From Dyella thiooxydans (lineage in GTDB: Bacteria > Pseudomonadota > Gammaproteobacteria > Xanthomonadales > Rhodanobacteraceae), in NCBI RefSeq assembly GCF_001641285.1, contig NZ_CP014841.1, positions 2,108,001 through 2,172,000 of the forward strand: 64,000 nucleotides of DNA, in the 5' to 3' direction. Below, in pieces: positions 14,046 through 17,819 of this stretch (the stretch's first letter is position 1; every line of letters starts with the position of its first letter). The notes below the pieces were generated by a model. It did no database searches, was not told the origin of the DNA, and saw nothing but the letters and a program-made list of their open reading frames with translations. Made by a program: the position numbers and the translations under genes.

Positions 14046-14129
14046 TGTAGGAGCCCGCTCGCGGGCGATGCTTTTTTTGCTTCGATGTGGATCAGGGGCA
14101 GGAGCATCGCCCGCGAGCGGGCTCCTACA
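14046..14129. repeat. TAGGAGC-type interspersed palindrome, 26-bp perfect arms
   Basis: Arms 14046-14071 and 14104-14129 are exact reverse complements that begin TGTAGGAGCCCGCTCGCGGG and end GATGC; the loop carries a T7 run. Elements with the same TAGGAGC outer tag but different inner palindromes occur at 33219, 33349 and 61030, which fits a REP/BIME-like family. It lies after the fliK/flhB-like genes and may also end their transcript. Confidence 0.85.
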
Positions 14130-14263: not shown

Positions 14264-15235
14264 TCACCGATCCAGCGGACTGACCACGCCCATCCCACCC
14301 CGGTTGAGCACATGCGTATAGATCTGCGTGGTCGCCACATCCTTGTGGCCGAGCAGCTCCTGGATGGTGCGGATGTCCTGCCCCGCTTCCAGCAGGTGGG
14401 TCGCAAAGGAGTGGCGCAGGGTGTGCGCACTGATCGACTTGACGATGCCCGCGGACAGCGCAGCCCGCTTCAGAGCTCGCGACAGCAGACCGTCATCGAC
14501 ATGATGCCGGCGGATCAGGCCACTGGACGGATCAGTGGCACGCTGCACCGAAGGAAACACGTACTGCCACCCGGTCTCGCGCGCAGCATTCGGATATTTG
14601 CGGGCAAGCGCAAACGGAAGCCAGACCGCACCGAAACCCTCGGACAGATCCTGCGCATGCAGCAGGCGCGCGCGCTCAATCTCCCGTTGCAGCGGCTCGA
14701 TCAAGGACCGGGGCAACATGGTGCGCCGATCCTTGCCACCCTTGCCGTTGCGAATGGTGATTTCATTGCGGCCGAAATCGACATCCTTGATCCGTAGCCG
14801 CAGCGCCTCCATGAGGCGCATGCCGGTACCGTAGAGCAGTGAGGCGATGAGCCAGGGGCGGCCGTCCATCCTTGCCAGCAGCGCCTTCACCTCGCCGACG
14901 GAGAGCACGGTCGGAACCCGCTTCGGGCGCTTGGCGCGCACCACATCCTCCAGCCATGGCAGGTCGACGCCGAGCACGTCCCGATAAAGGAACAGCAGCG
15001 CGGACAGCGCCTGGTTCTGGGTACTTGCAGATACCTTGGCATCCACCGCCAGGTGCGACAGAAATGCCTCGACCTCCACTGCCCCCATGTCCCGTGGATG
15101 CTTGCGGCCGTTGGCCAGGACGAAGCGCCTGATCCACCCCACGTAAGCGTGCTCAGTCCGCAGGCTGTAGTGCTTCAGACGCAGCACACGGCGAACTTCC
15201 TCCAGCAGACGCGGCGCCCGGCTCCCCGACACCAT
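14264..15235 (-). CDS. intI: Integron integrase IntI (tyrosine recombinase)
   Basis: Encodes 323 residues. N-terminal core-binding domain with [20 protein letters not shown], then a catalytic domain with Arg ([19 protein letters not shown]), [12 protein letters not shown] (H-x-x-R), LLGHKDV and the nucleophile Tyr in [10 protein letters not shown]. The extra segment [20 protein letters not shown] before the HxxR motif is the integron-integrase-specific helix that separates IntI from XerC/D. It catalyses attI x attC cassette insertion. The start at 15235 aligns with known IntI N-termini; MSYQRESG at 15271, with GAGGCG upstream, is the main alternative. It points away from the cassette array, as usual. 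No LexA-type box was recognised upstream. Confidence 0.93.
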
Positions 15236-15432
15236 ACGGTTTATTTCCCCACTCTCGCGCTGATAAGACATAGCGCCTCGCTTCGCCAGATATGCACCGG
15301 GCATCTTGACCGCGCCAAGGCGCCCAAGATAGTCGGCAAGCGGCTGATTGAAGGTAGGAATTCTTCGCTTGACGAACTGCCCAAACAGCGCAGACCATCG
15401 ATGCATATGCCCCGATATGGGGTCTACTAAGC

Positions 15433-15817: not shown

Positions 15818-16255
15818 ATGCAGCACCGCGATCTTGAGCTCCTTGCCGACTACTTCCAGTTCTATCTGCAAGACGAGCCAGCAAGCGGCGATTTGTCGGA
15901 CGCTTGGACAGAGGACGCGGTTGAGAGGTTGCTGGCTGTCGCGCCGGGGGTCGTGGGCGTCGGCACCATCACAAACGGTAATGTTCCAGTCACCATCCAA
16001 GTTCTTGACCATGAGCCGGCCCAGTCAGGCGCGAGCTACGACCAGATCAATGAGTGTTCTCTAGAAGTGGCGGAGGGTCCTCTTGTCGTAGCTGGGTGTA
16101 CGGACTACTTTCCAGAGGCAGTGCGTATCCCTATAGCTGCGCAAACCTACCGGGTCCGAGTGAGCTATTGCCTCTCCGGTGAGGAGAGCTATCTTGTACA
16201 GCTCTGGCCAGCGCCAGCTATTTTCCCCGTCGTGGTTAAGGCTCGTGCGGCCTAA
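15818..16255 (+). CDS. Cassette gene 2: hypothetical protein
   Basis: Encodes 145 residues, acidic and soluble: an N-terminal helix (LELLADYFQFYLQDEPASG), then beta-rich sequence with TVTIxVL-like strands (NGNVPVTIQVLDHEP) and YRVRVSYCLSGEESYLVQLW near the end. No catalytic motif or signal peptide is seen and the family is not recognised. The start is 8 bases after attC 1, and the stop lies in the left end of the disrupted attC 2. Its third-position GC is lower than in flanking chromosomal genes, which fits acquisition. Confidence 0.75.
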   Translation: MQHRDLELLADYFQFYLQDEPASGDLSDAWTEDAVERLLAVAPGVVGVGTITNGNVPVTIQVLDHEPAQSGASYDQINECSLEVAEGPLVVAGCTDYFPEAVRIPIAAQTYRVRVSYCLSGEESYLVQLWPAPAIFPVVVKARAA

Positions 16256-16261
16256 CAATTC
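16250..16261 (+). other. attC site 2, left part (split by the insertion element)
   Basis: GCCTAACAATTC, the left end of an attC. Joined to 17760-17819 it rebuilds a complete 72-base site ending GTTAGGT, without extra or missing bases. Confidence 0.85.
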
Positions 16262-16264
16262 CGT

Positions 16265-16275
16265 AAGAGACTTCC
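16265..16275 (+). repeat. Subterminal inverted repeat, left end of the IS
   Basis: AAGAGACTTCC, the reverse complement of 17742-17752. It lies at the end downstream of the transposase gene. Confidence 0.85.
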
Positions 16276-16464
16276 GATCAATCCCGGGTGCATGACGCTT
16301 TTGCCCCAGGCGTTCGGGCCACTGCCAATCATCATGTTGTCCTCCGATGGTGCGTATTGCGTGTCGATGCGATGCGGCTTCAACGGATGCCAGACTGCAT
16401 TTCCGTAAACGGTCTTGTGGGGTCGATGCTGCCGACCCGGACCAGGGTATAAACCGCACCCGGC

Positions 16465-16545
16465 GACCTCATTCATTCATCGGACTGACCGGCGTGCGGG
16501 GATCGGCCGCGACGCGGGATGGACGTCCAAATAGTTAGTCAGGTT
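16465..16545 (-). ncRNA. Candidate seekRNA/bridge RNA of the IS
   Basis: In the non-coding tail downstream of the recombinase stop, two short segments match the two halves of the rebuilt target. On the minus strand 16538-16530 reads CTAACTATT against target CTAACAATT (8 of 9). On the plus strand 16471-16479 reads ATTCATTCA, exactly as in the target across the insertion point. The two are in opposite sense, about 60 bases apart, as expected for guides that pair with opposite target strands. IS1111-group elements are known to encode such guide RNAs after the recombinase gene. Ends of the RNA are not known. Confidence 0.45.
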
Positions 16546-16604
16546 CTCGCCGGGTCGGTCTGACCCGTTGTCTACCGCGTCGCACGGACGGTGAAACGAA
16601 TCTC

Positions 16605-17675
16605 TCAAACGGTGACGATGGTTCGCTGATGCCTCGGATGCTGCAGGCAGGCGTGCGGGTCGTAGTCGACGTCCCGGGCGAGCATCGCCCACGCCTGCCG
16701 CGCATGCTTGTTGGCGATCGCCACCAGCACTTTGCCGAACGGCAATCGGCGATCCAGCGTGCGTATCCACAGTTGCTCCGGCGTGGCCTGCTCCGTCGCC
16801 ACCGCCTTGGCCCGCTGCAGGCTGCTGCGCGCGCCCTGGATCAGCAGCGTGCGCAGATAGGCATCGCCACGGCAGCTGATCGTGCCCAGACGCGCTCGCC
16901 CGCCCGTGGAGTGCTGCATCGGCACCAGACCCAGCCAGGCGGCCAGCTGCCGACCGTTGCGGAAGTCGGTCGCGGCGCCCAGCGTCGCCACCACCGCGTC
17001 GGCGGTGATCGGCCCAATGCCGACGATCGAGCGCAGCCGCATGCAGCGCGTATCGTCTCGCGCGTGGGCGTCGATACGGGCATCGCATGCCTCGATGCGC
17101 TCGCGCACCTGCGCCCAGTGGGCGGCCAGGTCGCGCAGCAGCTCGCGGAGCTCGCCGGGCAGTTCGTAGGCCTCCAGGTCGGCCAGCACCCGGCGTAACG
17201 CCACGTCGCTGTTGGCCACCACGATGCCGAACTCGGCCAGCAGGCCACGCAGCCGGTTGCCGATGGCCAGGCCCTCGGCCTTGTAGCCCTCGCGCACCCG
17301 GTGCCATGCCAGCCGAGCCTGCTGCTCCACCGACTTCACCGGCACGAAGCGCATGTTGCCCTGCCGGGCGGCGGTGGCGATCGCCTCGGCGTCGTTGCGG
17401 TCGTTCTTGGTGGTGCGGCTCTTGCGGAACGGGCCAACGAACTGGGCGGCGATGATCCTCGGCTGCAAGCCCAGCACCAGGCAGTGCCGGGCCCAATGAT
17501 GCGCTCCGCTGCACGCCTCCATCGCCACCACGGTGCCGGCCGGCTGCTGGCCGAGCCACGCGGCAAAGGCGTCGCGCTTCACCTCCTGCCGCCGCAGCAC
17601 GTGTCCGACGGCATCCATCTCGCACACCGAGAACACCCGCTTCGCCAGGTCCACACCCAGGGTTATAGTGCCCAT
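16605..17675 (-). CDS. IS110/IS1111-family transposase (DEDD recombinase)
   Basis: Encodes 356 residues. The N-terminal RuvC-like DEDD domain starts TITLGVDLAKRVFSVCEMD with the first Asp, followed by AMEACSGAHHWAR (Glu), and KNDRNDAEAIATAAR with the last acidic pair. A coiled middle region leads to the C-terminal Tnp2 domain with SIVGIGPITADAVVATLG, ATDFRNGRQLAAWLGLVP and the serine-bearing stretch HSTGGRARLGTISCRGDAYLR. It cuts and joins DNA guided by an element-encoded RNA. GGAGGAAGTC precedes the ATG. The frame is intact, so the element may be active. Confidence 0.95.
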   Translation of the reverse strand: MGTITLGVDLAKRVFSVCEMDAVGHVLRRQEVKRDAFAAWLGQQPAGTVVAMEACSGAHHWARHCLVLGLQPRIIAAQFVGPFRKSRTTKNDRNDAEAIATAARQGNMRFVPVKSVEQQARLAWHRVREGYKAEGLAIGNRLRGLLAEFGIVVANSDVALRRVLADLEAYELPGELRELLRDLAAHWAQVRERIEACDARIDAHARDDTRCMRLRSIVGIGPITADAVVATLGAATDFRNGRQLAAWLGLVPMQHSTGGRARLGTISCRGDAYLRTLLIQGARSSLQRAKAVATEQATPEQLWIRTLDRRLPFGKVLVAIANKHARQAWAMLARDVDYDPHACLQHPRHQRTIVTV

Positions 17676-17741
17676 GGAGACTTCCTCCTCTGCTGACGGT
17701 TGTGTCGCAACACCATCATGGCCCTCGAGGCCGAAAGGGGA

Positions 17742-17752
17742 GGAAGTCTCTT
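17742..17752 (-). repeat. Subterminal inverted repeat, right end of the IS
   Basis: GGAAGTCTCTT, partner of 16265-16275. A larger inverted pair, GAGACTTCCTCC at 17677-17688 and GGAGGAAGTCTC at 17739-17750, encloses the transposase start region and could fold to limit transposase translation. Confidence 0.8.
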
Positions 17753-17759
17753 TTTACTC

Positions 17760-17819
17760 ATTCAAGCCGACCGCCCACTGGCTACGCCAGCGGTCGGCGC
17801 CTTAATTCAAGCGTTAGGT
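17760..17819 (+). other. attC site 2, right part
   Basis: ATTCAAGCCGACCGCCC through the inner hairpin to GTTAGGT at 17813-17819. The inner boxes (ATTCAAGCC; CTTAATTCAAGC) differ from attC 1 and attC 3, so this cassette has a different origin. Confidence 0.88.

What the first reader, a model, noticed from the sequence alone, without database searches (positions are those of the whole stretch)
16465..16545. Candidate two-part guide RNA that explains attC targeting
Downstream of the recombinase stop, CTAACTATT (minus, 16538-16530) matches the left target half CTAACAATT at 8 of 9, and ATTCATTCA (plus, 16471-16479) matches the sequence across the insertion point exactly. The two matches lie in opposite sense about 60 bases apart, as expected for a seekRNA/bridge RNA with left and right target guides. 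If correct, the guide for attC is readable directly from the element.
Basis: partly seen in the sequence, partly recalled or inferred. Interest (0 to 1): 0.75.

Follow-up and report, generated by a model that had tools for sequence, protein, structure and literature searches.

The report
Guide RNA of an integron-targeting insertion sequence
A jumping DNA element sitting in an integron carries, just behind its enzyme gene, the code for a folded RNA with two short stretches that appear to read the integron site it jumps into and, further along, a stretch that appears to read the element's own end; the kind of system is known, and the end-reading stretch is the part of most interest.

Summary
Window 16262-17759 (minus) is a 1498-bp IS1111-type insertion sequence inside an attC of a chromosomal integron. 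Its 3' noncoding region encodes a covarying fold whose large internal loop holds both reported segments, on opposite strands. Among 110 related copies (73 usable for one segment, 50 for the other) the variable bases track the insertion site: CUAAC+2 nt at 16538-16532 and UGAAU(GA) at 16479-16473; the outermost bases of the reported matches do not. The order is that published for IS1111. Two relatives have changed guides and sit at fitting sites lacking the attC left edge. RNA-guided attC targeting was shown experimentally in 2024 (ISKpn4, ISPst6; PMC11187229), so this is a new member of a known kind. Beyond the finding, the RNA carries a further segment, UUACG(GA) at 16408-16402, equal to the element's right end and tracking it over seven sequence types (56 of 62 lineages exact; 0 of 10000 permutations as good). 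It looks like a donor guide and bears on the role of the long IS1111 RNA, which that paper leaves open. Expression is untested.

The parts
16262..17759 (-). Whole insertion sequence, 1498 bp, IS1111 type; inserted in attC, transposase gene against the cassette direction
   Evidence: Ends from the 11-bp subterminal inverted repeat and 7/3-bp extensions; same ends in the two other copies of the genome (L002 has one extra A in the left end)
16605..17675 (-). DEDD transposase gene, 356 aa
   Evidence: Pfam Transposase_20 2.3e-24 and DEDD_Tnp_IS110 5.3e-14; NCBIfam NF033542 'IS110 family RNA-guided transposase' 313 bits, cut-off 140; IS621 transposase 1.7e-5; GL-P----S(t)G motif of IS1111 transposases reads GLVPMQHSTG
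17742..17759 (-). Left end: 7-bp extension GAGTAAA (17759-17753) and repeat AAGAGACTTCC (17752-17742)
16262..16275 (-). Right end: repeat GGAAGTCTCTT (16275-16265) and 3-bp extension ACG (16264-16262)
16371..16575 (-). Stretch modelled as the guide RNA (target half then donor half); true 5' and 3' ends unknown
   Evidence: RNAalifold on 57 sequences, 41 pairs, 180 doubly changed cells against a shuffled mean of 53.6 (200 shuffles) and a largest value of 72 (another 200)
16532..16538 (-). Target guide 1, 5'-CUAACUA: complementary to the top strand (IS orientation) right of the insertion point
   Evidence: CUAAC conserved; next two bases track the target, 1.17 of 2 against 0.86 +/- 0.069, n=56 lineages, 0/4000
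16473..16479 (-). Target guide 2, 5'-UGAAUGA: same sense as the top strand left of and across the insertion point
   Evidence: positions -5 to -1 track, 4.14 of 5 against 3.67 +/- 0.094, n=38 lineages, 0/4000
16447..16453 (-). Proposed donor guide 1, 5'-UUUAUAC: complementary at 6 of 7 to GTAAAAA of the left end
   Evidence: 7-mer census in the 40 copies where the search pattern fitted; the left end does not vary, so no tracking test is possible; inference
16402..16408 (-). Proposed donor guide 2, 5'-UUACGGA: same as right end TTACG plus the GA that begins the left end
   Evidence: tracks the right end, 4.887 of 5 against 3.953 +/- 0.079, 62 lineages, 0/10000; 60 of 62 agree at -5..-2; on a rough tree 15 changes of RNA type, 17 of end type, 17 of the joint state
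16250..16261 (+). attC, left fragment (R'' GCCTAAC and AATTC)
   Evidence: joined site folds as a hairpin of attC layout, z -4.5
17760..17819 (+). attC, right fragment (ATTCAAG ... R' GTTAGGT)
14264..15406 (-). Integron integrase gene intI
   Evidence: NCBIfam TIGR02249 integron integrase 488 bits, cut-off 265

Best explanation
The segments are the two target guides of the noncoding (seek/bridge) RNA of an IS1111-type element. Shown by comparison: the 3' noncoding region encodes a conserved, covarying fold in which CUAAC+2 nt and UGAAY+GA face each other in one internal loop, and their variable bases track the target bases right and left of the insertion point. Inferred from the published IS1111/IS110 work: the RNA is made and binds the transposase; [quoted passage not shown] the element is joined there in one orientation from a circular form with abutted ends. 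Shown by comparison: a further segment, UUACG+GA, equals and tracks the element's right end. Inferred: it is the donor guide that reads the abutted right-left junction, so the full RNA reads both partners, as a bridge RNA does.
For: Coordinates and matches. IS1111 anatomy: 11-bp subterminal repeats, 7/3-bp extensions, 3' noncoding region. The three copies in the genome sit at the same edge, CTTGnnn left and GTTAG right. Covarying fold. Larger set, also with permutation only within close relatives (guide 1 bases 1-2 0/4000; guide 2 -5..-1 p 0.0013). Changed guides with changed sites: L054 CCGACA equals its left flank 6 of 6; genome G125, eight sites, target A opposite guide U in 8 of 8, guide 2 24 of 40 bases against 10 expected. 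Donor segment. Order of guides as published for IS1111.
Against: No expression, processing or binding data; no Rfam family matches. The window's own guide mismatches its target at tracked base 1 (T:T). With attC targets only, the whole-scan test does not exceed its null (0.39 against 95% level 0.46), although the directed tests remain (guide 1 bases 1-2 0/4000, guide 2 p 0.0065). Many attC bases are nearly constant, so much of the match cannot be tested by variation. The distance from insertion point to G[TC]TAG is 4 or 6 instead of 5 in three of the eight G125 sites and 4 in L054. The donor half cut out alone (16390-16470) folds no better than shuffles (z 0.57). The donor guide sits uneasily with the report that an 82-nt seekRNA suffices for ISEc11.
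Confidence: 0.93

Rival explanations
1. The transposase protein itself recognises attC (its sequence or its folded hairpin), and the RNA matches are coincidence or remnants of attC captured in the element.
For: The three copies in this genome sit at the same attC edge; attC folds well; CTAAC in the RNA is nearly constant.
Against: Variable bases track the target; a relative with 77% identical transposase and changed guides sits at a matching site with none of three attC marks (L054), and eight G125 sites lack the CTTG edge, though two of them have a YTAAC 61-67 nt away; the segments lie in a covarying loop.
Confidence: 0.03
2. The two matches are chance hits in a 340-nt noncoding region.
For: An 8/9 match alone is expected in 19% of randomised regions.
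Against: Both together 0.3%; the same register tops an unbiased scan over 31 lineages; tracking 0/4000.
Confidence: 0.02
3. The segment equal to the right end (16408-16402) is not a donor guide but a regulatory or processing copy of the end, kept similar by sequence exchange within the element.
For: An 82-nt RNA supported ISEc11 transposition; the two stretches lie within 150 nt of each other; donor half alone does not fold better than shuffles.
Against: Only the 5 bases at the very end plus GA are shared, whereas exchange should carry longer tracts (base -6 agrees in none of 62 lineages); 52 divergent IS1111-like elements also show an end-matching segment above permutation (5.79 of 7 against 5.40 +/- 0.071, 0/5000); same geometry as the published IS621 donor loop.
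Confidence: 0.2

Closest known systems
ISKpn4 and ISPst6 seekRNA (IS1111 elements that target attC; Siddiquee et al. 2024, PMC11187229, parts 1-5 of 9 of the text read)
   Same: IS1111 transposase, downstream noncoding region, two short target matches with the top-strand complement first, target at one end of attC
   Different: Sequences of ISKpn4/ISPst6 were not obtained here, so guides and insertion point could not be compared base by base; in the parts read, that paper reports target matches only and leaves the long RNA's role open
IS1111-attC group (Tetu and Holmes 2008; Post and Hall 2009; both seen only as cited references)
   Same: IS1111-type elements inserted in attC of integrons
   Different: The close relatives found here are mostly Lysobacterales; membership by sequence not checked
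IS621 bridge RNA (Durrant et al. 2024, PMC11208160, passages read)
   Same: Target loop and donor loop each with two guides, core dinucleotide in both; the paper also predicts donor-binding bases by inspection in three IS1111 elements
   Different: Here the RNA lies 3' of the gene instead of 5'; guide order reversed; long subterminal repeats

Membership tests
IS1111 family | Subterminal inverted repeats of usually 11-13 bp with 7-bp left and 3-bp right extensions | tested here: met
   AAGAGACTTCC/GGAAGTCTCTT, GAGTAAA and ACG; definition
IS1111 family | DEDD transposase with GL-P----S(t)G motif | tested here: met
   motif definition
IS1111 family | Longer noncoding region downstream of the transposase gene | tested here: met
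   343 bp, 16262-16604
IS1111 family | Transposase phylogeny places it with IS1111 | not tested
   no tree with named IS1111/IS110 references was made
seekRNA of IS1111 type | Two segments matching opposite target strands, top-strand complement 5' of the bottom-strand match | tested here: met
   order
seekRNA of IS1111 type | RNA expressed and co-purifying with the transposase | not testable with these tools
   needs RNA data
IS1111-attC group | Insertion at a fixed place and orientation in attC | tested here: met
   three of three copies in the own genome at the same R''-L'' edge and orientation; for L003 the R' mark used (YTAAC) is absent, the stretch reading CCAACG
IS1111-attC group | Sequence relation to named members (ISKpn4, ISPst6, ISPa21, ISPa25) | not tested
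bispecific bridge RNA | Segment that matches the right-end side of the abutted ends (donor) | tested here: met
   by tracking; binding itself not testable here
bispecific bridge RNA | Second donor guide for the left end | tested here: inconclusive
   6 of 7 complementary, but the left end is constant

The most novel reading that the evidence does not exclude
The long RNA of IS1111 elements is a true two-partner bridge RNA: besides the target guides it carries a donor guide that reads the element's own right end and is kept matched by selection whenever that end changes (seven end types; up to about 15 co-changes on a rough tree). The short target-only RNA that suffices in the ISEc11 assay would then be a processed or partial form, and both target and donor specificity of IS1111 elements could be read from sequence.
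Probability: 0.7. Interest if true: 0.62.

Novelty: new member of a known kind. Interest (0 to 1): 0.5.

Why it matters
It shows that the attC guide of such an element can be read from sequence and delimited by natural variation to about 7 nt per side, and that relatives with changed guides sit at other sites. The donor-end segment gives a direct test of an open question about the long IS1111 RNA and of whether IS1111 and IS110 elements share one mechanism.

Tried and rejected
Rfam: three matches, all microRNA models far below their gathering scores; no guide-RNA family. Mutual information between all noncoding columns and target columns was dominated by gappy columns, shared descent and the many G125 copies and was replaced by permutation of pairing scores. 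The first donor test used a register one base off and showed nothing except at -4 (36 of 10000); in the right register it is nearly exact. In the class-wide search with the RNA model 1 of 369 genomes matched, the own one (strict filters), so the model appears to cover only this clade. Six plasmid neighbours fetched to look for named attC elements (H12, H61, H63, H64, H73, H80) had no integron in their annotation within 900 bases; their sequences were not examined. Rejected: recognition by protein alone, and chance (see rivals).

Dropped rows. (basis): only relatives of at least 60% identity with a left end and a right end found; seven rows without a right end were left out (L038, L004, L022, L047, L056, L055, L064). 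A2 took 33 of 35 distinct RNA stretches. L127, L065, L133, L023 left out for doubtful flanks (31 lineages left); 165 hits, 110 rows after removing duplicates; at least one copy (L127/L234) is still listed twice; guide 1 used 73 of 110 rows (17 without the anchor in the RNA, 10 without right flank, 10 right flank without the anchor); guide 2 used 50 of 110 (49 without left flank, 9 without the segment, 2 with another IS end as flank); 78 of 110 (26 without the donor motif, 6 without right end); 52 of 71 divergent loci; ends were set automatically and some are probably wrong (for example L081, L100); of the 11 alike G125 copies, eight were used; L127 abuts another IS end, and no left end was found for L196 and L197.

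Full report
Setting. The window lies in a 4.23-Mb single-contig genome. Lysobacterales is inferred: a same-genus genome (G003) carries the copy also held in a named Lysobacterales record, and the closest transposases are from Rhodanobacter, Frateuria and Dyella. The window holds an integron integrase (14264-15406 minus; TIGR02249, 488 bits), then gene cassettes. Between the cassette gene 15818-16255 and the next cassette lies an IS: transposase 16605-17675 minus, subterminal repeats AAGAGACTTCC/GGAAGTCTCTT with 7-bp and 3-bp extensions, so 16262-17759, 1498 bp. Leaving the IS out gives GCCTAACAATTC^ATTCAAGCCG..., which folds as a hairpin of attC layout (z -4.5). The IS is between R'' and L'', with the transposase gene against the cassette direction.

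Observation. Both matches are present at the stated coordinates. Finding both by chance in the noncoding region has a probability of about 0.3% by a Markov control, while the 8/9 match alone is common (19%).

Order of the guides. In IS orientation the target top strand is CTTGAAT|GAATTGTTAG. The RNA carries first CUAACUAUU (complement of the right side, 8 of 9), then UGAAUGAAU (same as the left side and across the junction). This is the order reported for IS1111 seekRNAs and the reverse of IS110 (PMC11187229, parts 1-4). That paper reports by experiment that the transposases of ISKpn4 and ISPst6, which target attC, purify with such an RNA; so the principle is published.

Comparative set. Transposase searches gave 98 of 233 family genomes with a match, many partial, and 80 loci (the best of 249) from named genomes. 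A covariance model of the RNA (R1) matched 49 of 233 family genomes and 1 of 369 class genomes, the own one. After removing duplicates there are 110 rows, with at least one copy still listed twice.

Structure. RNAalifold on 33 sequences gives 22 pairs, 99.0% of cells paired, 48 doubly changed cells against 12.5 +/- 2.7 in shuffles, none of 500 as high; slid controls at most 9. Guide 1 and guide 2 lie opposite each other in one internal loop. With the downstream part, 57 sequences give 41 pairs and 180 doubly changed cells against a shuffled mean of 53.6 (largest 72), with a second loop holding the donor segments; one row is nearly all gaps in the paired columns. The donor part taken alone is not better folded than shuffles (z 0.57).

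Guide-target tracking. With attC targets only (29 lineages), guide 1 still ranks first but does not exceed the whole-scan null (0.39 against 0.46 at 95%), and guide 2 is not among the fourteen listed. On the larger set, guide 1 bases 1 and 2 after CUAAC track (1.17 against 0.86 +/- 0.069, 56 lineages, 0/4000; also 0/4000 within close-relative clusters and with attC only, n=54); bases 3 and 4 do not. Guide 2 tracks at -5..-1 (4.14 against 3.67 +/- 0.094, 38 lineages, 0/4000; p 0.0013 within clusters; p 0.0065 attC only, n=36); position by position only -1 and -5 are clear (p 0.0008, 0.0020). At -1, U opposite C (a G-U pair with the bottom strand) is common (8 of 38), C opposite T rare (3 of 38). 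Beyond GA, +3 does not track and +4 weakly.

Changed guides. L054 (77% identical transposase): guide 2 reads CCGACA and its left flank is CCGACA (6 of 6); the site shows none of the three attC marks. Genome G125: guide 1 CUAACCU, guide 2 AAGAC; eight of its 11 alike copies sit at sites without the CTTG edge, with G[TC]TAG at the right, the base opposite the new U being A in 8 of 8, the base opposite C being G in 5 of 8, and guide 2 matching 24 of 40 bases (10 expected, binomial 2.8e-6, not corrected for base composition). In three of the eight the distance to G[TC]TAG is 4 or 6 rather than 5, and two have a YTAAC 61-67 nt away, about as often as chance would give (my estimate). Of the 48 rows with both ends, 24 show all three attC marks; most of the rest lack only the YTAAC mark. 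In the own genome, L003 has guide base C opposite target G where the window has T opposite T. The own genome holds 13 uninterrupted attC-like edges matching the pattern with at most one mismatch.

Donor guide. Downstream, the RNA reads UUACG-GA, the same as right end TTACG followed by the GA that starts the left end. In 62 lineages the five bases agree at 4.887 of 5 against 3.953 +/- 0.079 (0/10000; also 0/10000 within clusters); 56 of 62 are exact, over seven types (TTACG, CTAAG, CCAAG, CTACG, TTATG, TTGAG, CTAGG). A scan of 2844 combinations peaks there (0.95; largest of 300 permuted maxima 0.31). On a rough tree of about 200 nt per tip, RNA type changes 15 times, right-end type 17 and the joint state 17, consistent with every RNA change falling together with an end change; 60 of 62 tips agree at -5..-2. 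Tip-shuffled labels change 19.6 times (least 17), so the tree holds little signal for the type and 15 may be an overcount. A partner UUUAUAC/UUUUUAC is complementary at 6 or 7 of 7 to GTAAAAA of the left end, which does not vary. In 52 divergent IS1111-like elements (36-51% identity) own-end, own-left-flank and own-right-flank matches all exceed permutation (0/5000 each; exact 7 of 7 in 6, 14 and 14 of 52, against 3.2, 2.9 and 5.5% for other elements' sequences).

Literature. Durrant et al. (PMC11208160; passages) predicted donor-binding bases in IS1111 RNAs by inspection (three IS1111 elements shown). Siddiquee et al. state that the role of the long RNA remains to be established and that 82 nt suffice for ISEc11. 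In the searches made and the passages read I saw no covariation test of an IS1111 donor guide; supplements, subscription papers and preprints were not seen.

Verdict. The finding is real and correctly read; it is a further case of a published mechanism. The added value is the delimitation of the guides, the two redirected relatives, and the co-changing donor segment.

Noticed in passing
window 17666-17757 (minus), arms 17677-17691 and 17736-17750: The left-end repeat occurs again, inverted, over the likely ribosome-binding site and start of the transposase gene, giving a stable hairpin (-38.7 kcal/mol, z -3.6) that would cover AGGAGG and end next to the ATG; a 51% relative (L074) shows the same layout. 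Possibly translational control of the transposase.
   Followed up: partly
window 14046-14129: Perfect 27-nt inverted repeat (TGTAGGAGCCCGCTCGCGGGCGATGCT) with a 30-nt spacer beside intI; looks like a REP-type palindrome (recalled, not tested).
   Followed up: no
G000:C1 about 545-547 kb, 1046 kb, 2124 kb, 2843 kb, 3234-3235 kb, 3643 kb: attC-like edges occur at several separate places of the chromosome (13 matches with at most one mismatch, control pattern 0), so cassettes may not be confined to the array next to intI.
   Followed up: partly
L196/L197 (G125:C2 409-416 kb): Two copies with the redirected G125 RNA have attC-like right flanks (GAATGGTTAGG, GAAATGTTAGG), and a left end 822 nt downstream of the L197 RNA has flank CTTGGAC, so one guide set may be found both in attC and elsewhere.
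   Followed up: partly
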